A stretch of 20,054 nucleotides of DNA from positions 1 to 20,054 of IMG/VR virus record IMGVR_UViG_3300034096_000137; one strand, given 5' to 3'. Positions 426-20,054 of the stretch are shown piece after piece. Origin of the DNA: a virus. Numbering within the stretch: position 1 is the first letter of the stretch; every line of letters begins with the position of its first letter. A program made the position numbers and the translations under genes. The notes below the pieces were generated by a model that ran no database searches, was not told the DNA's origin, and was given only the letters and a program-made list of their open reading frames with translations.

Positions 426-1070
426 TTATAAAAATTTTAAATTAAATTTATTAGCTTTAATAAGCCTTGTCATATGACTTGGTGATTTTTTAAAAATATC
501 AGCCACCTCTTGAATTGAATTATAAATGATATTATTAACTGTATCCACAACTTTTTTTCTAGTTTTTGAATAAATTTTTTCTTTTTCTTCTTGTGTTTTT
601 ACACGACCTATTTGAGCCTTACTTATAATTGTTTTTTGATTTTGGGATATAGTTTTACCAAAATTGGGATTATTTTTACCTGTCATACGGTTTATCATAT
701 TTTCTCTTTTTTCTATTGACCAGGATTTACCATACATAGGATTTTTATTTCCCTTTTTACTTTCTGATATTTTTTTAATAATATCAATATCTGGTTCAAA
801 CAAGCCTTCACCACCACTTGTTAAATTTACTAATTTTATATTGCATGACTTATAAAGTTTAATAAATTCTTTTTCTTTTTTACAAGCAGTTTCCCAAGTT
901 ATATCAGTAAGTAATATATCCACGCTATACTCAATTTTATTAGTTAAATTTTTCCAATACTTATTTCTATTATGCTTTGAGTGTGCTCTTTTAAAAAAAG
1001 TATCAGAACCTATACCAATATAAAATGGTAAATTTGTATCTTTTCTTATATGTCTATACAAATATGGCAT
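426..1070 (-). CDS. GIY-YIG homing endonuclease with NUMOD3 motifs
   Basis: The 214-aa product begins with a GIY-YIG nuclease core. YLYRHI at residues 3-8 and FYIGIG at 16-21 give the paired strands. R28 is the candidate catalytic Arg, a Glu near 66-68 (KEKEF) the candidate metal ligand, and VNLTSGGEG at 81-89 closes the domain. Two NUMOD3-type DNA-binding motifs follow: GNKNPMYGKS at 107-116 and GKNNPNFGKT at 131-140. A C-terminal segment (about 172-212) has the NUMOD1-like pattern of a short beta hairpin and helix-turn-helix. Such free-standing endonucleases cut intronless target alleles and spread by repair. The gene sits between the large terminase (6 nt gap) and portal (1 nt gap) genes and looks more T/A-run-rich than both, consistent with recent acquisition. 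No intron boundaries are visible in the flanking genes. Confidence 0.9.
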   Translation of the reverse strand: MPYLYRHIRKDTNLPFYIGIGSDTFFKRAHSKHNRNKYWKNLTNKIEYSVDILLTDITWETACKKEKEFIKLYKSCNIKLVNLTSGGEGLFEPDIDIIKKISESKKGNKNPMYGKSWSIEKRENMINRMTGKNNPNFGKTISQNQKTIISKAQIGRVKTQEEKEKIYSKTRKKVVDTVNNIIYNSIQEVADIFKKSPSHMTRLIKANKFNLKFL

Positions 1071-11653: not shown

Positions 11654-11944
11654 TTATAAAGTATTTGCTTGTTCTACAAATGAATCAAATTCTAGTTGTT
11701 GCTCTGGTGTCATATCAGCATAAGGATATTCTACAAATTCAGCAGTAATACCTAAACCATTTATTTCAGTAAATTTAATAACCCTTTTAATTGGATTATT
11801 AATATTGAATGTAAATAATTTTGCACCATTTAAATAACTAAAATCTACACCTGTGAATTGTGATAATTCAAGTGTTTTAATAAGTTCATACTCCTCATTG
11901 TAGCAATAAACTTGTGTATCTATTATATCTATTTTCTCTATCAT
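11654..11944 (-). CDS. Hypothetical acidic protein in fibre cluster
   Basis: The 96-aa product opens with beta strands (MIEKIDIIDTQVYCYNEEYE) and ends in an acidic helix (YADMTPEQQLEFDSFVEQAN). It has no recognisable motif. It is coupled to the upstream beta-helix fibre by a TAATG overlap (11942-11946) and followed 1 nt later by the next fibre, so it is sandwiched between two fibre genes. A fibre-specific chaperone or connector role is possible by position only. Confidence 0.5.
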   Translation of the reverse strand: MIEKIDIIDTQVYCYNEEYELIKTLELSQFTGVDFSYLNGAKLFTFNINNPIKRVIKFTEINGLGITAEFVEYPYADMTPEQQLEFDSFVEQANTL

Positions 11945-13917
11945 TATATTAAAATATTTCCTTGGTTATCTTCTGTGTTTGTTATTCCTTGAATTATGTT
12001 AGTTGAATTAACAGCGGTTGTTGATCCTTTATACACGTTGCCTGCATATTTCCAAGTTGATCCTATATAACCTGTAATACAATAAGCTGAAGCATTTGTT
12101 ACCTCTAAGAATGAATTTAAAATTTCCCTAGGACCTAAAGCATTTGTTGATGTGCAATGTCCTGAAGCATTATCCCATAAGCATCTTACAGTAGAATTAT
12201 AAATACTTGAAGAATTGGTAGCAACAGATGAAACTGAGTGAGTATAACTATTGTATAATGTAGCAGTAGCTCCATAATTACTAGATGATATTAAGGTTGA
12301 TTCATAAAAAATACCACTACCACCAACTCCTGAAGTTGAAATACCTATACAATTTCTACCTTGAGCGGTAACAGATGCACCAGTTCCAGAAGTAGAAATA
12401 CCTATACAGCCAGTAAATGTTTGACCGCTTATTCCAACCCCTGAAGTTGAAATACCTGTACCGTTTAAGTGCGTTCCATTACCTGCTATTCCAGCACCAC
12501 TTACAGCAATACCCATACAATTTACTGAATAAGTAGAAAATATGCCACTTCCAGTACCAGTTGATTCACCTATACAATCATAGTGTCTAGCATTTTCATA
12601 TAAAACTGAAAAGCCATCTAAATACCCTATAGCGTTTAATCCATATATTGCAATACCATCAAATACAGCTGTTCCGTAAGTGTTTTGCATTATTACACCA
12701 TTAGCCTTAAATGTACCACCTGTACAATTTAAAACATAACCACCAAGTCCATTAGCTCTACCTGTTCTTACAACTTTCCAATTAAATGCTTCAAATGTAG
12801 ATGAAGCACAGGTTAAGGCACTAGTATTGTCATTTACACTTAATGTATATGTATGACCGTTTCCATTAATTTTAACGCCATTTTTTAATGCGATTGCCAC
12901 ACTACCTGTTTCAACAATATCAGAAAATAATTCAATTGTATTTCCGCTAACTGCTGCTGTCATAGCGAGAGTTAAAGTAGCATAATAAGTATAAACACCA
13001 CTTGAATTAGCTATTCCTATTATACCACTTGAGCTAGTTGCATAATTAGGAATGTTTAATGTACTACCAACTAATGTTGCTGCACCTGATGTTCCTGTAG
13101 TTGTAAGTGTAATAGCATTTTGTTTACCATTAAATGTAGACCAATCAATAGATGATAAATAACCATCTACACTACCTGTTGCAGCTGGAATACTTATAGC
13201 TGGAGTTGTTCCTCCAGATGATACTATTGGTGCACTACCAGTAACTGAGGTAACTGCACCAGTTGGTATTACTTGATTTAATGTAGTTGTCCCAACAGAA
13301 TAATGAGCTGATCCCTCAGTAATCATGTGTATTGTTTGAGAACCTGTACCAGTATTTGTTGCTACTACTTTTACAACTATTCTATCTGTAGTTAATAAAC
13401 TTGTATTAGGAAACACACCATCTAATAAATACATCTGAGTAATTGAAGTTGTTGTTATACTACCAACATCTGTAGTAAATATTAAACTTTCAACGGCTGA
13501 AATATCTCTTTTATATACTTCTACATAAACATCCCAACTATCAATAGCTCCAGAATAAAAATGTAAAAAGAATTGCCATAAACCTGCTGGAATAGTTGTT
13601 GTATTAGGTGTACCTGCTGGAGTTTGATAAGCTCCAATAACACTTGTTGCACCTACACTGATTGTTGTAGGTGTATCTTGTTCAGTTGTACTTGTTGGTA
13701 AAGATGAAAATTCTTTATAAGGGCTTTCTGTAACTGATTCATTTAAATAATAAGCTGTAGCTCCAATAGAACCTGGTACATTAACTGTAACTTCTTCGCC
13801 TACTGCACTTGCAGTAACACCTGCGCCAACAAAGTTTATATTTGATGTGTCTGTAGTAATTGGTGTACCTTCTTCTTTTACACCAAGTTTTTTCTTTATA
13901 TTAATTTCTGTACTCAT
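11944..13917 (-). CDS. Multi-domain tail fibre/spike with beta-helix domain
   Basis: The product has 657 aa. Residues about 25-50 are a common phage appendage N-terminal segment (NFVGAGVTASAVGEEVTVNV). Residues about 52-212 form a beta-sandwich-like module seen in other phage appendage proteins (IPAGLWQFFLHFYSGAIDSW; EGSAHYSVGTTTLNQ). Residues 218-290 are a linker of the VTGSAPIVSSGGTTPAISIP type found in Bacteroidota phage fibres. From about 297 a right-handed beta-helix begins (VSGNTIELFSDIVETGSVAI), continuing with 18-19-residue rungs at 447-540. The C-terminus (about 545-657) is Ser/Thr/Asn-rich and may be the trimerised tip. Glycan binding or cleavage is possible, but no catalytic acid pair can be assigned. 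Confidence 0.75.
   Translation of the reverse strand: MSTEINIKKKLGVKEEGTPITTDTSNINFVGAGVTASAVGEEVTVNVPGSIGATAYYLNESVTESPYKEFSSLPTSTTEQDTPTTISVGATSVIGAYQTPAGTPNTTTIPAGLWQFFLHFYSGAIDSWDVYVEVYKRDISAVESLIFTTDVGSITTTSITQMYLLDGVFPNTSLLTTDRIVVKVVATNTGTGSQTIHMITEGSAHYSVGTTTLNQVIPTGAVTSVTGSAPIVSSGGTTPAISIPAATGSVDGYLSSIDWSTFNGKQNAITLTTTGTSGAATLVGSTLNIPNYATSSSGIIGIANSSGVYTYYATLTLAMTAAVSGNTIELFSDIVETGSVAIALKNGVKINGNGHTYTLSVNDNTSALTCASSTFEAFNWKVVRTGRANGLGGYVLNCTGGTFKANGVIMQNTYGTAVFDGIAIYGLNAIGYLDGFSVLYENARHYDCIGESTGTGSGIFSTYSVNCMGIAVSGAGIAGNGTHLNGTGISTSGVGISGQTFTGCIGISTSGTGASVTAQGRNCIGISTSGVGGSGIFYESTLISSSNYGATATLYNSYTHSVSSVATNSSSIYNSTVRCLWDNASGHCTSTNALGPREILNSFLEVTNASAYCITGYIGSTWKYAGNVYKGSTTAVNSTNIIQGITNTEDNQGNILI
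12298..12579 (-). repeat. Beta-helix rung repeats with stacked Cys
   Basis: Five protein units of 18-19 residues, such as CIGISTSGTGASVTAQGRN and CIGISTSGVGGSGIFYEST, put Cys at residues 448, 467, 504 and 523. A Gly takes the equivalent place near 486. The spacing is that of single turns of a parallel beta-helix with one residue stacked rung over rung. Confidence 0.7.
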
Positions 13918-13928
13918 TTTTTATCTTT

Positions 13929-15191
13929 TTAATAAATTTCTCTCCATTGCATTGAAACACCTGCTTCAGTTGTAGTACTTCCTACATTTGTTGCATATAT
14001 TACATATATTTCAGAGTCTGTACTTGTATAATTTTGTACTATATAATTTTTCTTAGCTGCAGATGGATTTGAGTTATTAGCAATTCCTTCTTTACCTGAT
14101 GCTGATGCTGGAACATATCCTGATGCAATTACATCTCCTCCTGAAAATGCAGTAGCTCCAATATTATATTCTACTCCTGAATCTGTATCTACAGTTAACC
14201 ATGCTGTTCCGGTAGTTAATGCAGCAGCATTTGGTAGTTTAACTACTTGATATACAAGTGGTTCTTTAGTAGAAAAGATATTGTAATTATCTAATCTCAC
14301 TATCATTCTATTACTGTATGTATTAAAAGTATTTTTTAATCTTATAGCAAATAATGGTAAACTTGCACCTGAAGCCATACTTCTTAAAGTAGTATTTAAT
14401 GCTGACCAGTTTTGACCTGATTCAACATATCCACCTTCAGATAGTACAGTAGAACAAATTTGATCAAAATATGCTACAGGATTAGAACCTACACTTGTTA
14501 TCTCACATCTAACTGGAAGATTAGGATTACTCATATAAACTACATCTAGTACGTTATCATGATTAAATTCATGTGCGGTAACAAATGCTCCGTCATGTAC
14601 AAACCCTAACTTTACAGTACCAACACCTAACCATTGAAATTGAATAAATAATATTTGAGTTTTATCTACAAGAAAATTAAAACCTGAAGGACCTGTACCA
14701 TTACACTTATCTACATTCCAATTTGATTGTGTTACTCTTTCTGATTCAGTAGGTGTACCTGATGTACTAGTTCTTATTACAAAACTTAAAGTACCGTTAC
14801 CTGCTTGTTCTAGATATATACCATTATAATCATCAAAATAACCTGTTCTTTTAGTAACTCCTGATACAGCATTATATAAATTAAATGTGCTATATATCAA
14901 TTGAGATTTACCAGGCATATACTGATGATAAAACTTAGTTTGATGAACTGCAAAACTATTACTAGTAGTTGATGTAGTTAATCTTGCACAAGCTTTATTT
15001 GGTTGAAATATTATTGTACCACCATTACCAGTGTTATCAATAAAGTTAGGATCAAGGCCATATAAGTTTTTATAATCCCCAAGTGTATAAGGTTCTGATA
15101 CGCGTAATCTCCCAAAGGCATCAGCCAACATTGGGTAACTAGTAAATAATGGTTCACTTGGTAAACCTGCTATGGTAACTTGAGTACTCAT
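13929..15191 (-). CDS. Phage virion/tail appendage protein
   Basis: The 420-aa product begins with DAFGRLRVSEPYTLGDYKN at about residues 24-42. I recall this sequence type (GRLRVSxPYTLFDSK) from structural proteins of many large marine and gut phages. The rest is beta-rich: a Thr/Asn-rich core with QNWSALNTTLRSMASGASLP (about 262-281) and RLKNTFNTYSNRMIVRLDNY (about 284-303), and no enzymatic motif. It probably forms part of the tail or a fibre base. It is the second gene after the promoter-like element at 15889-15897, 3 nt from the first. Virion location is inferred from family memory and neighbours. Confidence 0.65.
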   Translation of the reverse strand: MSTQVTIAGLPSEPLFTSYPMLADAFGRLRVSEPYTLGDYKNLYGLDPNFIDNTGNGGTIIFQPNKACARLTTSTTSNSFAVHQTKFYHQYMPGKSQLIYSTFNLYNAVSGVTKRTGYFDDYNGIYLEQAGNGTLSFVIRTSTSGTPTESERVTQSNWNVDKCNGTGPSGFNFLVDKTQILFIQFQWLGVGTVKLGFVHDGAFVTAHEFNHDNVLDVVYMSNPNLPVRCEITSVGSNPVAYFDQICSTVLSEGGYVESGQNWSALNTTLRSMASGASLPLFAIRLKNTFNTYSNRMIVRLDNYNIFSTKEPLVYQVVKLPNAAALTTGTAWLTVDTDSGVEYNIGATAFSGGDVIASGYVPASASGKEGIANNSNPSAAKKNYIVQNYTSTDSEIYVIYATNVGSTTTEAGVSMQWREIY

Positions 15192-15194
15192 TTA

Positions 15195-15842
15195 TTATGA
15201 ATTATAAATAATGATTAACTCAGTTCCTGTAGCATCATAATCAAATGTATTTATTGGATATGTATTGTTTAGTGAACCTGCATCAAAGTTAATTGTTTCT
15301 CCTGGTTTAAGTATAGCTCCTAATACTGTAGCATCAGCTGATCCAACATTAGAAAATGATATACTGTATATTGTTTGTGCTATTGTAAATGCTCCTGAAA
15401 CCCTGTAAAAATTAGGAGTTCTTGTTTTAAAGTCTACACGAGTAGCAATTTTACCAGCTTTATCGTCAATATCAGTTAATACAATAAGCATTTGTGCCAA
15501 ATAACTATTTGGATTTACATATGTAATTGGATCTACTGGAGTACCTGGTACATTACTACCTGCTTGAAAATAAACAGGTGGATTAAATGTTCCTGTATCA
15601 GGATTATATATTCTCACCTCTAACCATGTAACATCATTACTATCAATTACTAAAGCTGCTTCATAATCTGCTCCTCCTTGAATTGCAGCAAGTATTTGAT
15701 TAAGTAATGAATCTACATTTGTTGTATTTGCATTTATTTCAGAAAGGCTATTTGCAGCACTCTCTTGACCAAATAACATGTTTAATTGCCATGGTAAGTT
15801 AGTCCCTTTACCACCATATGTTTTTAAATTTCCTACAGACAT
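15195..15842 (-). CDS. Phage structural protein (first gene of second fibre operon)
   Basis: The 215-aa product from the ATG at 15840-15842 begins MSVGNLKTYGGKGTNLPWQL. I recall this opening (MSVGNLK..G..G.NfPWQlkmL) in structural-cluster proteins of other phages, often beside the GRLRVSxPYTL protein as here. The frame is open 24 codons further upstream (to 15914, MWLFFFIFAYIESF), but that stretch reads through the U-tract of a terminator and the promoter-like box, so it is not coding. The middle (ADYEAALVIDSNDVTWLEVR, about 78-97; ARVDFKTRTPNFYRVSGAFT from about 154 on) is beta-rich. Probably a connector or assembly protein of the tail or fibres. Confidence 0.65.
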   Translation of the reverse strand: MSVGNLKTYGGKGTNLPWQLNMLFGQESAANSLSEINANTTNVDSLLNQILAAIQGGADYEAALVIDSNDVTWLEVRIYNPDTGTFNPPVYFQAGSNVPGTPVDPITYVNPNSYLAQMLIVLTDIDDKAGKIATRVDFKTRTPNFYRVSGAFTIAQTIYSISFSNVGSADATVLGAILKPGETINFDAGSLNNTYPINTFDYDATGTELIIIYNS

Positions 15843-15888
15843 AATAATTGATTTATATATAATAATATACAGAAAACTTTCTATATAA

Positions 15889-15897
15889 GCAAATATA
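15889..15897 (-). promoter_or_regulatory. Candidate Bacteroidota-type -7 promoter element
   Basis: On the minus strand this reads TATATTTGC, a full match to the Bacteroidota -7 consensus TAnnTTTGC, in the U-tract of the terminator just upstream. It lies 47 nt before the ATG at 15842. No TTTG -33 element is seen at the expected distance. A promoter immediately following a terminator is the expected arrangement for restarting transcription. Confidence 0.5.
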
Positions 15898-15924
15898 AAA
15901 AAGAAAAGCCACATCTCTGTGGCT
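15896..15924 (-). terminator. Rho-independent terminator after the first fibre module
   Basis: Arms 907-913 (AGCCACA) and 918-924 (TGTGGCT) form a perfect 7-bp stem with a TCTC loop. On the minus transcript it is followed by TTTCTTTTTT (906-897). It lies 7 nt after the stop of the 48-aa gene and ends the module covering 20054-15932. Confidence 0.85.
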
Positions 15925-15931
15925 CTTGCTT

Positions 15932-16078
15932 TTAATTTTCTTGAACTAATTCAGGTCCTGTAAATAAGACTCCTAATGCTTGTGTAATCATTGCTGCATC
16001 TTGTAAACTAAATGCTCCTTTAAGGAATGCTTGATTTAAAGCTTGTTCAACTACTTGTTTAGCTTGCTCTGGACTCAT
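15932..16078 (-). CDS. Small helical protein (48 aa)
   Basis: An ATG at 16076-16078 opens a 48-aa frame that stops at 15932-15934, beginning MSPEQAKQVVEQALNQAFLK and continuing with SLQDAAMITQALGVLF. It is predicted to be two amphipathic helices. The start overlaps the stop of the 72-aa gene as ATGA, which strongly suggests coupled translation, and it ends 7 nt before a terminator. Ala/Gln-rich composition and two Pro at helix starts look like a genuine small protein. Function is unknown. It may pair with the adjacent 72-aa protein in fibre assembly. Confidence 0.75.
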   Translation of the reverse strand: MSPEQAKQVVEQALNQAFLKGAFSLQDAAMITQALGVLFTGPELVQEN

Positions 16079-16293
16079 ATTTTAGACAATTCAGTTTTTT
16101 GTGCTTTTGTTAATCCTGCTACAAACCAGTCTTTAGTTAACATAATTCTAATGTGCTCTTCATTACGTGTTACTGTTGCTGTTTCTTCTTCAGTTAAAGT
16201 TTCTTTTGCTTTTAACTCAGTAATTAATGCTACACTATCATAAGCTGCTGTTACTGATTTTGCTACTTGTTCCGCTGTTAATTCTAATGCCAT
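16075..16293 (-). CDS. Small helical hypothetical protein
   Basis: The 72-aa product is almost entirely helical: ALELTAEQVAKSVTAAYDSV (2-21), ALITELKAKETLTEEETATV (22-41), then RNEEHIRIMLTKDWFVAGLT and a basic end. It has no membrane segment or motif that I recognise. It is followed by the coupled 48-aa gene and preceded by AAAAAATAAAAATC before its ATG. The pair between fibre genes and a terminator could be tail-fibre chaperones or connectors. That is inference from position. Confidence 0.6.
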   Translation of the reverse strand: MALELTAEQVAKSVTAAYDSVALITELKAKETLTEEETATVTRNEEHIRIMLTKDWFVAGLTKAQKTELSKI

Positions 16294-16332
16294 GATTTTT
16301 ATTTTTTGTAAAGTTATTATTTTATTTAATTA

Positions 16333-17145
16333 TTATGCTATTTGTAATGGAATTTTATAATCAACACCATTGATTTTTACTGTCCAAGATACTGTAGGTG
16401 TTAGTGCTTCAGTAGCAATTGTACCTGCATTGGTTCCAGAAGATCCTACTACAAATTGATTATTAGCTGTTGCTTGAGCTTGTTTTCCTAATATTATACA
16501 ATTATTATAATTTTGATTATTAATAGCAGATCCTATCATAATATTATACTGACCTGTTGTATTACTGTTTCCAGCAGATGCACCGATTGCAATATTATAC
16601 TGACCTGTTGTATTTGCATATAATGAATTTTCACCAATAGCTATATTTCTTTGTCCAGTTGTGTTGTAAAATAATGTTGAAATTCCTAAGCATGAATTAC
16701 TATTACCACTGATATTAAAATACAAAGAATTATTTCCAACTGAAGCATTACCAATTCCATTTATATTATTGTATGATGAATTGACACCAATTGCTGTATT
16801 TTCAGAACCTGTTGTATTAGAATATAATGCAGTTCTTCCAATTCCAGTATTGTAAACTTGATTTGTCCCTGTATAACCTGCTCTCCATCCAAAAAAAGCA
16901 TTCGCTGACCCACTAATATTATCTGCAAAAGCATCTTCACCGACAAACGTATTTTCTAAAGCATCAGTTGGAGGAACTGGAGCTGGTACCAAATCTAAGA
17001 AATCAGTTACTGAGATTGCACCAGGTAAATATCCATCATCTCTTCTTGGATCTTTTAATCCTAGTGGGATTAATGTTTGAGATGCATCTACTGTTGTTAC
17101 TTGTCTCTTGCTCTTAAGCCAAGAGATGATATTTAAAACATCCAT
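16333..17145 (-). CDS. Tail fibre with shared anchor, 17-aa repeats and shared C-terminus
   Basis: The product has 270 aa. Residues 1-50 (MDVLNIISWLKSKRQVTTVD, then GLKDPRRDDGYLPGAISVTD) closely match the start of the 158-aa fibre protein at 18869-19345 and, more loosely, the 561-aa fibre. This points to a common virion-attachment segment. Residues about 64-220 hold nine or so 17-residue units of the type NTTGQYNIAIGASAGNS, related to trimeric adhesin head repeats. The last 50 residues (ATANNQFVVGSSGTNAGTIA, then SWTVKINGVDYKIPLQIA) are shared with the 561-aa fibre. Probably a short trimeric fibre. Confidence 0.75.
   Translation of the reverse strand: MDVLNIISWLKSKRQVTTVDASQTLIPLGLKDPRRDDGYLPGAISVTDFLDLVPAPVPPTDALENTFVGEDAFADNISGSANAFFGWRAGYTGTNQVYNTGIGRTALYSNTTGSENTAIGVNSSYNNINGIGNASVGNNSLYFNISGNSNSCLGISTLFYNTTGQRNIAIGENSLYANTTGQYNIAIGASAGNSNTTGQYNIMIGSAINNQNYNNCIILGKQAQATANNQFVVGSSGTNAGTIATEALTPTVSWTVKINGVDYKIPLQIA
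16445..16467 (-). repeat. 23-bp direct repeat, copy 1 (shared fibre C-terminus)
   Basis: This copy is identical over 23 bases to 17276-17298 and encodes the same peptide around NNQFVVGS. The copies are 831 bp apart, a multiple of three, in the same frame of two adjacent fibre genes. Confidence 0.8.
16486..16956 (-). repeat. 51-nt coding repeats (17-aa fibre repeat)
   Basis: About nine tandem units encode NTTG-x-x-N-(I/T)-A-(I/V)-G patterns. Two units share an identical 24-nt stretch at 16540-16563 and 16591-16614, exactly 51 bases apart, so recent unit duplication or homogenisation has occurred. Confidence 0.75.
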
Positions 17146-17169
17146 TTTTATTTATTTTTAAATTAATTA

Positions 17170-18855
17170 TTATGCTAATAAAATTTTTCTTGCTACACCA
17201 TTAATAACTACATTCCATACTTGAGTAGATGAGTTAACTTCTGATACTACAGAACCTGCTGCTTCAACATTTGAACCTACTACAAATTGATTATTAGCAG
17301 TAGCTGCGGCATAACTTCCAAGAATAACTGAACCACTGAAGTTACCAGTTGCTATTTGATGTCCTACACCTACATTTCTATTTCCAGTAACGCAATCACC
17401 ACCAGCACTATAACCTATAAAGTTATTTTGATAAGCAGTTGTTATTGCTGCTCCTGAATTTTGACCAATAGAATTATTATGGAAACCTGATGTAAGAGAA
17501 CTTAATGCTGATGAACCCATTGCATTATTTGATAAACCTGTGGTACAATTGTAAAGAGCATATCCACCTATTGCATTATTGTAACTTCCTGATACATTAT
17601 TTGATAAAGTATTATATCCAAAAGAACCATTTGATGAACCAGTATTATTCTTAGTTAAAGTACCTACACCAACTGCTGTATTATTATTTCCATTAGTATT
17701 AAGGCTCAATGAGTCATTACCTAATGCAACATTAAAATTACCAGTTGTATTACTATTTAATGTATTACTACCTATTCCTGTATTATAAGAACCAGTTGTA
17801 TTATTATACATTGCTGACGTACCTATTGCAATATTATGTTGACCAGTATTGTTATATAATGTGTTATATCCAATTGCAACATTATAAAATACTGCTGTTC
17901 CTGTTTTTAATGCTTGTGAACCAATAGCAATATTTTCTCTACCAGAAATATTTCCTGACATTGCTTCAGGACCGATTGCAAGATTTAGTCTACCTGTTGT
18001 ATTTGCTCGTAATGTATTAAGTCCAATTGCTGTATTTTCATAACCAGTAGTATTAGATTCTAAAGCTCTATAACCTATTGCTGTACTAGCAAATCCTGTA
18101 GTTTGACTGTATAATGCACGGTATCCAATAGCTAATTCTCCACCTGGATTTGTATCAGTAACTAAAGCTTGACATCCTATTGCTATATTTCCAAAACCTG
18201 TTGTATTGTTAGATAAAGCTGATAAACCAACAGCTGTATTATCATTACCTGTAGTATTACTTGTCAATGAAGCTCCCCCAACTGCAACATTATTTGTACC
18301 GGTTGTGTTACTTATTAAACTGAATCCACCGATAGCTAAAACATTTGAACCAGTAGTATTACTTAGTAATGCATTTCTTCCTATTGCAATACTAGAATTT
18401 GTTGTAGTGTTGTACAGGGTAGCTGTACCAATTGCTATATTATCTGAACCTGTAGTATTTAATCTAAGTGCAGATGCACCAATTCCAACATTACTAAATC
18501 CAGTTGTATTATTAGTTAACGTATTATAACCAAGTGCAACATTCTCACTACCTATTGTATTTACACTTAACGCTGATGGACCAAATGATATATTACTAGT
18601 AACATTACCACTACCATTATTCCATACAGTAAGATCACTTTCATTATACTCAAACCAATAAGGTAATGATGTAGGAGGAGGTAATAAACTAGCAATACTA
18701 CTAACTAAATCAGTAGTAGTTATTAATGCTGGTTGATAATTACCATAAAAATTTAAGTCTCTTACACCTACCGTGAATAAATCTGTTGCTTCTAGTATTG
18801 TTCTAACCTTACCATTAGAGATAAGATTAGAATAGTTTGTTATATTATTTAACAT
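17170..18855 (-). CDS. Long repetitive tail fibre (YadA-head-like)
   Basis: The product has 561 aa. Residues 1-55 are a diverged copy of the neighbouring fibre anchors (VRTILEATDLFTVGVRD aligned with VTTVDASQTLIPLGLKD). A Pro-rich hinge and SLPYWFEYNESDLTVWNNGS follow. Residues about 85-515 contain roughly 25 units of 17 residues, such as NTTGTNNVAVGGASLTS and NTTGSNVLAIGGFSLIS, typical of trimeric adhesin-like fibre shafts. The last 45 residues (AAATANNQFVVGSNVEAAGS, then VWNVVINGVARKILLA) match the C-terminus of the 270-aa fibre. No chaperone-type autoprotease is visible. Probably the longest fibre in the window. Unit number may vary between isolates. Confidence 0.8.
   Translation of the reverse strand: MLNNITNYSNLISNGKVRTILEATDLFTVGVRDLNFYGNYQPALITTTDLVSSIASLLPPPTSLPYWFEYNESDLTVWNNGSGNVTSNISFGPSALSVNTIGSENVALGYNTLTNNTTGFSNVGIGASALRLNTTGSDNIAIGTATLYNTTTNSSIAIGRNALLSNTTGSNVLAIGGFSLISNTTGTNNVAVGGASLTSNTTGNDNTAVGLSALSNNTTGFGNIAIGCQALVTDTNPGGELAIGYRALYSQTTGFASTAIGYRALESNTTGYENTAIGLNTLRANTTGRLNLAIGPEAMSGNISGRENIAIGSQALKTGTAVFYNVAIGYNTLYNNTGQHNIAIGTSAMYNNTTGSYNTGIGSNTLNSNTTGNFNVALGNDSLSLNTNGNNNTAVGVGTLTKNNTGSSNGSFGYNTLSNNVSGSYNNAIGGYALYNCTTGLSNNAMGSSALSSLTSGFHNNSIGQNSGAAITTAYQNNFIGYSAGGDCVTGNRNVGVGHQIATGNFSGSVILGSYAAATANNQFVVGSNVEAAGSVVSEVNSSTQVWNVVINGVARKILLA
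17276..17298 (-). repeat. 23-bp direct repeat, copy 2 (shared fibre C-terminus)
   Basis: This copy is identical to 16445-16467. Together the copies mark a homologous block at the ends of two adjacent fibre genes. Confidence 0.8.
17311..18603 (-). repeat. 51-nt coding repeats of the long fibre
   Basis: Tandem 17-residue units run with NTTG turns and A-(I/V)-G strands. At the nucleotide level units are similar but not identical, with recurrent CCTGTTGTATT/CCAGTAGTATT blocks. A few units deviate (TDTNPGG, NISG, a CTTG variant), suggesting diversification rather than recent expansion. Confidence 0.75.
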
Positions 18856-18868
18856 ATCTTTTTATTTA

Positions 18869-19345
18869 TTAGTTACCGCTTCTTGTTTTAACTACTGTGA
18901 AAGTAAATGGTCCTGTCATGTTATCTACATTAGTCCATTCATATCCGTTTGATGCCATAGCAAGTGTACTATTACATGGTCCTGCCACTACATTTGTATA
19001 TCCTAATAATACACCATCACCACCACCAGCAATCCAAGTTTCAACTCTACCGTCATAATGGTCATTAACAATAAGCATTCCTGAAAAGTTATCAATTAAA
19101 TGTGAAGCACCATTAGCTACAGCAACTGTATCATTAGATGAGTCAGCTACAATTAAGTTACCTTCAGCATCTATAACTGGCTCAGTAATTTGTGCTGCAA
19201 AGTTTTCTACTGTGATAACACCTGCAAGATATCCATCATCTCTACGGTCATCCTTTAAACCAATTGGCATTAATGTTGTTGCTGGATCAACACTTGTTAC
19301 ATATCGTTTATTTTTTATCCAGCTAATAATATTTAAAATATCCAT
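18869..19345 (-). CDS. Short tail-fibre protein with shared anchor and distal beta domain
   Basis: The product has 158 aa. Residues 1-48 (MDILNIISWIKNKRYVTSVD; GLKDDRRDDGYLAGVITVEN) nearly repeat the start of the 270-aa fibre. The remainder has no 17-residue units and forms a different domain: SGMLIVNDHYDGRVETWIAG (about 88-107), GDGVLLGYTNVV and TGPFTFTVVKTRSGN. This is a pattern I recall at the ends of other phage fibres. This is the clearest evidence that one anchor is joined to interchangeable distal parts. The gap to the following fibre gene is 13 nt. Confidence 0.7.
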   Translation of the reverse strand: MDILNIISWIKNKRYVTSVDPATTLMPIGLKDDRRDDGYLAGVITVENFAAQITEPVIDAEGNLIVADSSNDTVAVANGASHLIDNFSGMLIVNDHYDGRVETWIAGGGDGVLLGYTNVVAGPCNSTLAMASNGYEWTNVDNMTGPFTFTVVKTRSGN

Positions 19346-19350
19346 AATAA

Positions 19351-19581
19351 TTATTTGTAAAGTTCTTCAACTCTAGCAATTACATCTGCATCAGTCCATT
19401 GACCAATTGCATCATAAGCAGCTCCTGCCCAAAGAGTTATAACACCTAATTCTCTAGTATGTGCTTTTACTTCTTTTCTTGAGTTGCTATCAATAAGTTC
19501 TACAATTGTTAATTCTTCAATAGTTCTTTTTAACTCTTGAACTACTACTATTTCTTTTGGTGTTTCAAATGTGATTTTCAT
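19351..19581 (-). CDS. Small hypothetical protein in fibre cluster
   Basis: The 76-aa product has a strand start (MKITFETPKEIVVVQELKRT), a middle EELTIVELIDSNSRKEVKAH, and an end ELGVITLWAGAAYDAIGQWT followed by a short helix (DADVIARVEELYK). I have a vague memory of similar small proteins beside phage fibre genes, ending in the WxGxAYDAIGQWTD motif. It is 20 nt from the partial fibre gene and 5 nt before the 158-aa fibre gene. Possibly a connector or fibre-assembly protein. Confidence 0.6.
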   Translation of the reverse strand: MKITFETPKEIVVVQELKRTIEELTIVELIDSNSRKEVKAHTRELGVITLWAGAAYDAIGQWTDADVIARVEELYK

Positions 19582-19601
19582 AATATATTTTATTTAATTT
19601 A

Positions 19602-20054
19602 TTAAAGTCTTACTGCCTCTATGGCAAAAGTTGTTTGATTATAATATAAATACGTATTTCCTGCTATTGCTCCGTTAAGTACAGTGATTGCTGTAGTTGC
19701 TGCTGCTCTATCAACATAAGATGGTAATGTTGCATTAGCAAAAACTGTTTGTCCTGATAATGATCCACCTTTATGTGCTCTATAACCAAAAGCATTTACG
19801 TTATTTCCTGAAGAGTTCATACCTGCTTCTCTTCCAAAGAAATTAGAATTATTTGCACTTGGTGCATCTTTACCTGCTTCACGTCCTATAAAATTAGAGT
19901 AAGATGCATTAGTAGCTCTTAGTCCTGCACTGTCTCCAATAAAGTTTGAGTTACTAGCATTAGTAGCACTGTCTCCAGAAGATGATCCTATAAAAATTGA
20001 GTTATAAGCATTAACTGCATTTATCCCAGAGAAAGGACCAATGAATGTTGAATA
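19602..20054 (-). CDS. Tail fibre, C-terminal part (runs off right edge)
   Basis: The frame has no stop from 19602 to the window edge, so the gene starts outside. An internal ATG at 19820 is not the start, because the upstream frame continues the same repeats: NFIGDSAGLRATNASYS, NFIGREAGKDAPSANNS, NFFGREAGMNSSGNNVN. These are 17-residue fibre units with a different consensus (NFIG-x-x-AG) from those of the other fibres. The C-terminal part (GQTVFANATLPSYVDRAAAT, then a beta hairpin ending TFAIEAVRL) is a compact tip. Probably another trimeric fibre of the same array. Confidence 0.8.
   Translation of the reverse strand, partial: YSTFIGPFSGINAVNAYNSIFIGSSSGDSATNASNSNFIGDSAGLRATNASYSNFIGREAGKDAPSANNSNFFGREAGMNSSGNNVNAFGYRAHKGGSLSGQTVFANATLPSYVDRAAATTAITVLNGAIAGNTYLYYNQTTFAIEAVRL
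19780..20054 (-). repeat. 51-nt coding repeats of partial fibre gene
   Basis: At least five 17-residue units follow the pattern (N/S)-x-x-(F/I)-(I/F)-G-x-x-(A/S)-G. They continue beyond the window edge, so copy number is unknown. Confidence 0.7.

What the first reader, a model, noticed from the sequence alone, without database searches (positions are those of the whole stretch)
16333..19345. Three adjacent fibre genes share one anchor but carry different distal parts
The proteins at 16333-17145 and 18869-19345 begin almost identically (MD(V/I)LNIISW..K.KR.VT.VD, GLKD.RRDDGYL). The one at 17170-18855 has a diverged version of the same segment. Beyond about residue 55 they differ: 17-aa repeats of different length in two, an unrelated beta domain in the third. 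Seen directly: shared starts and different ends. Inferred: the start is a virion docking domain and the phage displays several fibres competing for, or occupying, equivalent sites. That would widen host range or allow switching.
Basis: partly seen in the sequence, partly recalled or inferred. Interest (0 to 1): 0.65.

Follow-up and report, generated by a model that had tools for sequence, protein, structure and literature searches.

The report
Phage fibre genes sharing one anchor
An uncultured relative of the crAss-like phages carries a row of at least four fibre genes that begin with the same short, probably virion-docking segment but end in exchangeable tips, and many related environmental phages show tips and docking segments being reshuffled by recombination.

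Summary
All genes lie on the minus strand. A (16333-17145) and C (18869-19345) share 33 of 54 N-terminal residues. B (17170-18855) has a diverged, co-linear version. A fourth gene, D (19602-20054, cut by the window end), carries the anchor in near-identical contigs. A and B also share a homologous C-terminal cap; only C's tip is unrelated.

The anchor was not found in Pfam, PHROGs, NCBIfam, PDB sequences or named phages, but a profile finds 449 places in IMG/VR. In 71 non-redundant loci, 146 anchored ORFs carry 133 unique distal parts in about 16 families. AlphaFold gives the anchor as helix-hairpin-helix; distal parts are YadA-head-like beta-rolls or beta knobs. Swapping is directly visible: identical anchors with different tips, identical tips with different anchors, and C's knob on unrelated N-termini. 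All ten large contigs checked have crAss-like terminase and capsid genes.

Best reading: several co-expressed fibres dock by one anchor fold, and recombination re-tips them. Docking, head or tail location, and which fibres are in virions are inferred. Slot-specific anchor subtypes and an operon-like arrangement favour parallel fibres over a genetic switch. Verdict: an undescribed anchor family, a new variant of the known multi-receptor-binding-protein design.

The parts
16333..17145 (-). Fibre gene A, 270 aa: anchor + 17-residue beta-roll repeats + cap
   Evidence: ORF; AF2 beta-roll pLDDT about 80-97; PDB fold hits are YadA-like adhesin heads
16984..17145 (-). Anchor of A (residues 1-54)
16336..16512 (-). 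C-terminal cap of A, homologous to that of B
   Evidence: z = 19.5
17170..18855 (-). Fibre gene B, 561 aa: diverged anchor + long beta-roll repeat array + cap
   Evidence: ORF; PHROG virion structural/tail spike hits on the repeats, down to 1e-77
18694..18855 (-). B-type anchor (MLNNITNY...)
   Evidence: hhalign to A/C anchors, probability 83%, E 9e-6; B-type family in 26 loci
17173..17343 (-). C-terminal cap of B
18869..19345 (-). Fibre gene C, 158 aa: anchor + beta knob
   Evidence: ORF; AF2 mean pLDDT 80.8
19184..19345 (-). Anchor of C (residues 1-54): helix 3-11, hairpin 25-31/39-45, helix 46-52
   Evidence: pLDDT about 75-90
18872..19174 (-). Exchangeable beta knob of C (about residues 58-158)
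   Evidence: found on other N-termini in L060, L061, L062, L057/L063; fibre/spike-like fold matches in BFVD
19602..20054 (-). Fibre gene D, C-terminal 150 aa only (cut by the window end); complete homologue is 363 aa with the anchor
   Evidence: L009:3914-5005, 100% over 150 aa
19351..19581 (-). 76-aa ORF between D and C, conserved in the array, no anchor; function unknown
   Evidence: 79% in L041
1077..3281 (-). Large terminase, crAss-like; places the phage

Best explanation
A-D are four co-transcribed virion fibre proteins of a crAss-like phage. Each has a ~50-residue N-terminal anchor (helix, beta-hairpin with an invariant R-x-D turn, short helix) that docks it to a constant part of the particle, then a linker, then a distal part: a left-handed beta-roll stalk like a YadA adhesin head with a C-terminal cap (A, B; D by its repeats) or a compact beta knob (C). 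Recombination at or inside the anchor swaps distal parts between genes and genomes, so the phage renews what it displays while keeping the attachment. Shown by sequence: the modules, the array and the swaps. Predicted: the folds. Inferred: docking, trimerisation, simultaneous display and a role in receptor binding.
For: Anchor far above chance in A, B and C and in D; 449 IMG/VR matches; 146 anchored ORFs with 133 unique distal parts in about 16 single-linkage families, anchor starting at residues 1-4 in 133 of 146. 152 pairs have anchors at least 85% alike with unrelated distal parts; 37 pairs have anchors at most 65% alike with distal parts at least 70% alike. DNA junctions: C versus L011, 83-93% identity for 150 nt, then about 46-70%; A versus L017, 60-76% for 90 nt, then 90-100% to the end. 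C's knob sits on a B-type anchor in L061 and on unrelated N-termini elsewhere; L011's second gene has an A-like anchor but a B-like cap. M1, L4, N5, R35 and D37 are invariant in 46 anchors under 80% alike, R35/D37 lying in the predicted hairpin turn. Fold and family matches are adhesin heads, tail spikes and tail fibres. Ten of ten large contigs carry crAss-like TerL and MCP. Precedent: crAss001 fibres gp21, gp29 and gp22 attach by N-terminal residues 1-38, 1-58 and 1-26 (PMC10172136).
Against: No virion data. No complex or trimer model could be made. The anchor shows no detectable similarity to crAss001 gp21, gp22 or gp29, so the docking site is unknown. Anchor confidence is low in the model of A (36-57). 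B's anchor similarity is modest. The 16-family count depends on BLAST thresholds and low-complexity masking.
Confidence: 0.7

Rival explanations
1. The anchor is a trimerisation or registration element (foldon-like), or a contact between fibre proteins forming one branched or composite fibre, and only one member touches the virion.
For: In CBA120-like and RaK2-like phages conserved N-terminal domains mostly join fibres to each other, with a single anchor protein (PMC11414711; PMC10253068). In crAss001 gp22 docks and other fibre proteins build on it (PMC10172136).
Against: Here all four paralogues carry the anchor at the N-terminus, and none carries an extra larger platform domain (no Pfam domain in A, B or C). 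A purely internal foldon would not need the invariant extreme N-terminus MD(I/V)LN.
Confidence: 0.17
2. The array is mainly a reservoir: one or two products are used in the virion and the others are silent or decaying cassettes kept for recombination.
For: Frequent swaps and array rearrangement between relatives.
Against: All ORFs are intact, co-directional and closely spaced, with no stop codons in anchors of relatives; anchor subtypes keep their positions across genomes.
Confidence: 0.08
3. The shared start is only the footprint of recent duplication, with no function of its own.
For: The genes are adjacent and alike at one end.
Against: A and C anchors differ at 35% of bases, 12 of 33 identical residues use different codons, and anchors are nearer to other genomes' anchors than to own paralogues (126 of 129): old duplicates under constraint.
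Confidence: 0.03

Closest known systems
PhicrAss001 fibres gp21 (head, trimer), gp29 (head, dimer), gp22 (tail) - PMC10172136
   Same: crAss-like virion; short N-terminal segments (38, 58, 26 residues) attach fibres; several fibre types on one particle
   Different: No detectable sequence homology of anchors; crAss001 anchors differ from each other, whereas here one anchor family is shared by a tandem array. crAss001 fibres lie between portal and MCP; here the array lies upstream of TerL
Ackermannviridae/CBA120 tail spikes TSP1-4 - PMC11414711
   Same: Adjacent multiple receptor-binding proteins with conserved N-terminal and variable C-terminal parts; conserved 5' ends proposed as recombination sites
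   Different: Large T4 gp10-like XD domains build a branched complex with one anchor protein (TSP4); here a ~50-aa anchor is on every member and no XD-type domain was found
Alcyoneusvirus (RaK2, phiK64-1) fibre complex - PMC10253068
   Same: Many fibre proteins, modular N-terminal domains, lineage-specific anchor without homologues elsewhere
   Different: Hierarchical branched fibres, depolymerases; a single 105-aa anchor protein gp528
Trimeric autotransporter adhesin heads (CbpF, BoaA, YadA-like)
   Same: Predicted beta-roll fold of A
   Different: Phage protein without signal peptide or membrane anchor; sequence repeats differ; a fold-level resemblance only

Membership tests
Crassvirales-like phages | crAss-type large terminase | tested here: met
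   Window TerL hits Crassvirales and Flavobacterium Fpv phages at ~25% identity over 85-91%
Crassvirales-like phages | crassvirus major capsid protein | tested here: met
   Not in the window; in relative L142 MCP = Pfam Crass_capsid PF23898, E 2e-32; MCP match in 10 of 10 anchored large contigs
Crassvirales-like phages | TerL-portal-x-MCP gene order | tested here: met
   L142: portal-size 917 aa, 418 aa, MCP 538 aa directly after TerL, as in cr130_1 and Fpv3
crAss001 gp21/gp22/gp29 anchors | sequence homology of the N-terminal attachment segment | tested here: not met
   HMM against crAss001 virion proteins no hit; hhalign to gp22 N-terminus probability 0.9%
Multi-receptor-binding-protein arrays with a conserved N-terminal module | adjacent genes, shared N-terminus, variable C-terminus, exchange at the junction | tested here: met
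Multi-receptor-binding-protein arrays with a conserved N-terminal module | N-terminal module binds the virion or a sister fibre | not testable with these tools
   No complex prediction or proteomics available
CBA120-type branched tail spikes | T4 gp10-like XD domains | tested here: not met
   No Pfam domain in A, B or C; AF2 models of A and C show no such domain
YadA-like head (trimeric adhesin) fold | left-handed parallel beta-roll | tested here: inconclusive
   Top PDB matches are CbpF and BoaA heads, best E 8e-4, TM about 0.3; trimer not modelled
Switchable fibre cassettes (invertible) | inverted repeats flanking an alternative orientation | tested here: not met
   No long, well-matched inverted repeats at 15800-20054; all genes in one direction
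Diversity-generating retroelement targets | reverse transcriptase with template/variable repeats | not tested
   The remainder of this genome is not held

The most novel reading that the evidence does not exclude
The anchor is a capsid docking peptide like crAss001 gp21/gp29, so A-D share the many hexon pockets of one head and every particle displays a mosaic of tips whose mixture is set by expression and renewed by recombination at the anchor.
Probability: 0.22. Interest if true: 0.65.

Novelty: new variant of a known kind. Interest (0 to 1): 0.48.

Why it matters
It defines an undescribed but common anchor in crAss-like environmental phages, gives a sequence handle (MD[IV]LN[FI]IS...R-x-D) for finding and delimiting receptor-binding candidates in otherwise unannotated contigs, and shows natural fibre re-tipping with visible junctions. 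It also makes a structural question testable: can one short N-terminal peptide serve several parallel fibres on one particle?

Tried and rejected
Anchor by sequence in named phages, species genomes, Pfam, PHROGs, NCBIfam and PDB (only melittin's ISWIKRKRQ, a 10-residue coincidence): nothing meaningful. Anchor against crAss001 fibres: no homology, despite a similar helix-then-hairpin order by eye in gp22. Knob of C in PDB: no confident match (T7 gp17 tip only a weak lead). Secretion signal reading of the anchor: rejected by inspection, no hydrophobic stretch followed by a cleavage site. Inversion switch: rejected. First alignments for C misplaced L057 and were replaced. hhalign A7 versus A2 is not used as evidence because A7 holds a B-type sequence.

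Full report
Observation. A (16333-17145, 270 aa) and C (18869-19345, 158 aa) share 33 of their first 54 residues (z = 37 against 2000 shuffles); B (17170-18855, 561 aa) is diverged (z = 9 to A, 5 to C). Identity is 65% at DNA level and 12 of 33 identical residues use different codons, so this is not a very recent copy. Profile comparison aligns B's segment over 50 of 53 columns (probability 83%, E 9e-6). Two things were missed. A and B also share a C-terminal cap (z = 19.5). A fourth member, D, begins beyond the window: the 150 residues at 19602-20054 are 100% identical to the end of a 363-aa protein in L009 that starts with the anchor.

What the phage is. The window is a 20,054-bp IMG/VR record. 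Its terminase matches Crassvirales and Flavobacterium Fpv phages at about 25% identity. Ten large anchored contigs (68-136 kb) all carry this terminase at 73-95% and a crAss-type capsid gene. In one of them (L142) the order after the terminase is a homing-endonuclease-like ORF, a portal-sized ORF, one ORF, and the MCP, and the MCP matches Pfam Crass_capsid at 2e-32. The closest named phage by MCP is Leptolyngbya phage Lbo-JY46 (28.5% over 99%). The host is not known.

The anchor. Searches found no relative in Pfam, PHROGs, NCBIfam, PDB sequences, the named-phage collection or the species genomes. A profile of 15 anchors found 449 relatives in IMG/VR, of which the best 80 were kept. The search pattern MD[IV]LN[FI]IS limits what can be found, so the true range is wider. 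In 71 non-redundant loci there are 146 anchored ORFs; in 133 the anchor starts at residues 1-4. In 46 anchors less than 80% alike M1, L4, N5, R35 and D37 are invariant and D2 and Y39 nearly so. AlphaFold with 41 sequences places residues 1-50 of C with pLDDT about 75-90 as helix 3-11, hairpin 25-31/39-45 and helix 46-52. The model of A, with 15 sequences, shows the same elements at 36-57. R35 and D37 lie in the turn. Constant polar residues at an extreme N-terminus, in front of unrelated distal parts, fit a surface that binds a constant partner; that it binds the virion is inference, with crAss001 gp21, gp29 and gp22 as precedents (PMC10172136) but no sequence homology to them.

The distal parts. 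A and B have a 17-residue period. The A model is a beta-roll whose best PDB matches are the CbpF and BoaA adhesin heads (best E 8e-4), a suggestive fold match. C's distal part is a beta knob with no confident PDB match; most of its named viral matches are tail spikes and tail fibres, at modest scores. Across the loci, 133 unique distal parts fall in about 16 single-linkage families.

Shuffling. Among 8911 pairs of anchored proteins, 152 have anchors at least 85% alike and unrelated distal parts, and 37 have anchors at most 65% alike and distal parts at least 70% alike. Two junctions involve the window's own genes. C and L011:8001-8840 are 83-93% identical in DNA for the first 150 nt and then fall to about 46-70%. 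A and L017:11714-12526 are 60-76% identical for about 90 nt and then 90-100% to the end, so a crossover fell inside the anchor. Distal parts also cross anchor classes. C's knob sits on a B-type anchor in L061 (67%) and on unrelated N-termini in L060, L062 and L057/L063. L011's second gene has an A-like anchor (34/54) but a B-like cap (38/55). This makes it likely that the two anchor classes do the same job. The exchange is at DNA level and between genomes.

Parallel fibres or a switch. The genes are co-directional with gaps of 5-24 nt inside the array, and no convincing inverted repeats or terminator separate them. Anchor subtypes follow position: in the window's nearest relatives the order is an a2 type, then a variable second slot, then B, then an a0 type. 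Within one locus paralogous anchors have a median identity of 59%, the best match in another locus 96%, and 126 of 129 are nearer to another genome's anchor (near relatives in the set inflate this). The fibres therefore look like long-kept, distinct parts that are probably all made. Whether they use equivalent sites is open.

Known kinds. Several receptor-binding proteins with conserved N-terminal and variable C-terminal parts are known from Ackermannviridae (PMC11414711) and alcyoneusviruses (PMC10253068), and recombination at conserved 5' ends has been proposed there. What differs here is one short anchor carried by every member of a tandem array in a crAss-like lineage, and the anchor family itself. 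I rate it a new variant of a known kind.

Noticed in passing
window 13929-15191 and L009:9417-10082: The window and L009 are 99.3% identical at 15180-20054 and 95.6% at 12860-13918, but the gene between is replaced: a 420-aa protein in the window, an unrelated 221-aa protein in L009, with junctions at the gene ends. An allelic swap of a structural gene between near-identical phages.
   Followed up: partly
window 13929-15191: Residues 24-420 are 49% identical to a virion structural protein of Cyanophage S-RIM32 and hit many Synechococcus myoviruses, while the first 23 residues do not match: another N-terminus/body exchange, across distant phages.
   Followed up: no
L060:222-5303: A different phage contig has four nearby ORFs sharing another N-terminus (SP-[DE]-x-x-L-[GN]-...-GD-x-x-[LV]-AR-x-[GA]-H), one of them ending in C's knob: the same design with a different anchor family.
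   Followed up: no
window 11944-13917; L009:9417 and 10082: A second recurring N-terminus (MST..I...DEG/EEG...INF.G.GV..S.VG) on neighbouring fibre-like genes, perhaps a second anchor family.
   Followed up: no
window 426-1070: Homing-endonuclease-like ORF (NUMOD3) directly after the terminase gene; relative L142 has a similar ORF between terminase and portal.
   Followed up: no
window 19351-19581: A conserved 76-aa ORF without anchor sits between D and C in several relatives; a possible fibre chaperone or adaptor, function unknown.
   Followed up: no
L142:4995-6611: The family's MCP is nearest to that of Leptolyngbya phage Lbo-JY46, whose host is a cyanobacterium, so the host may not be a Bacteroidota; unresolved.
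   Followed up: partly
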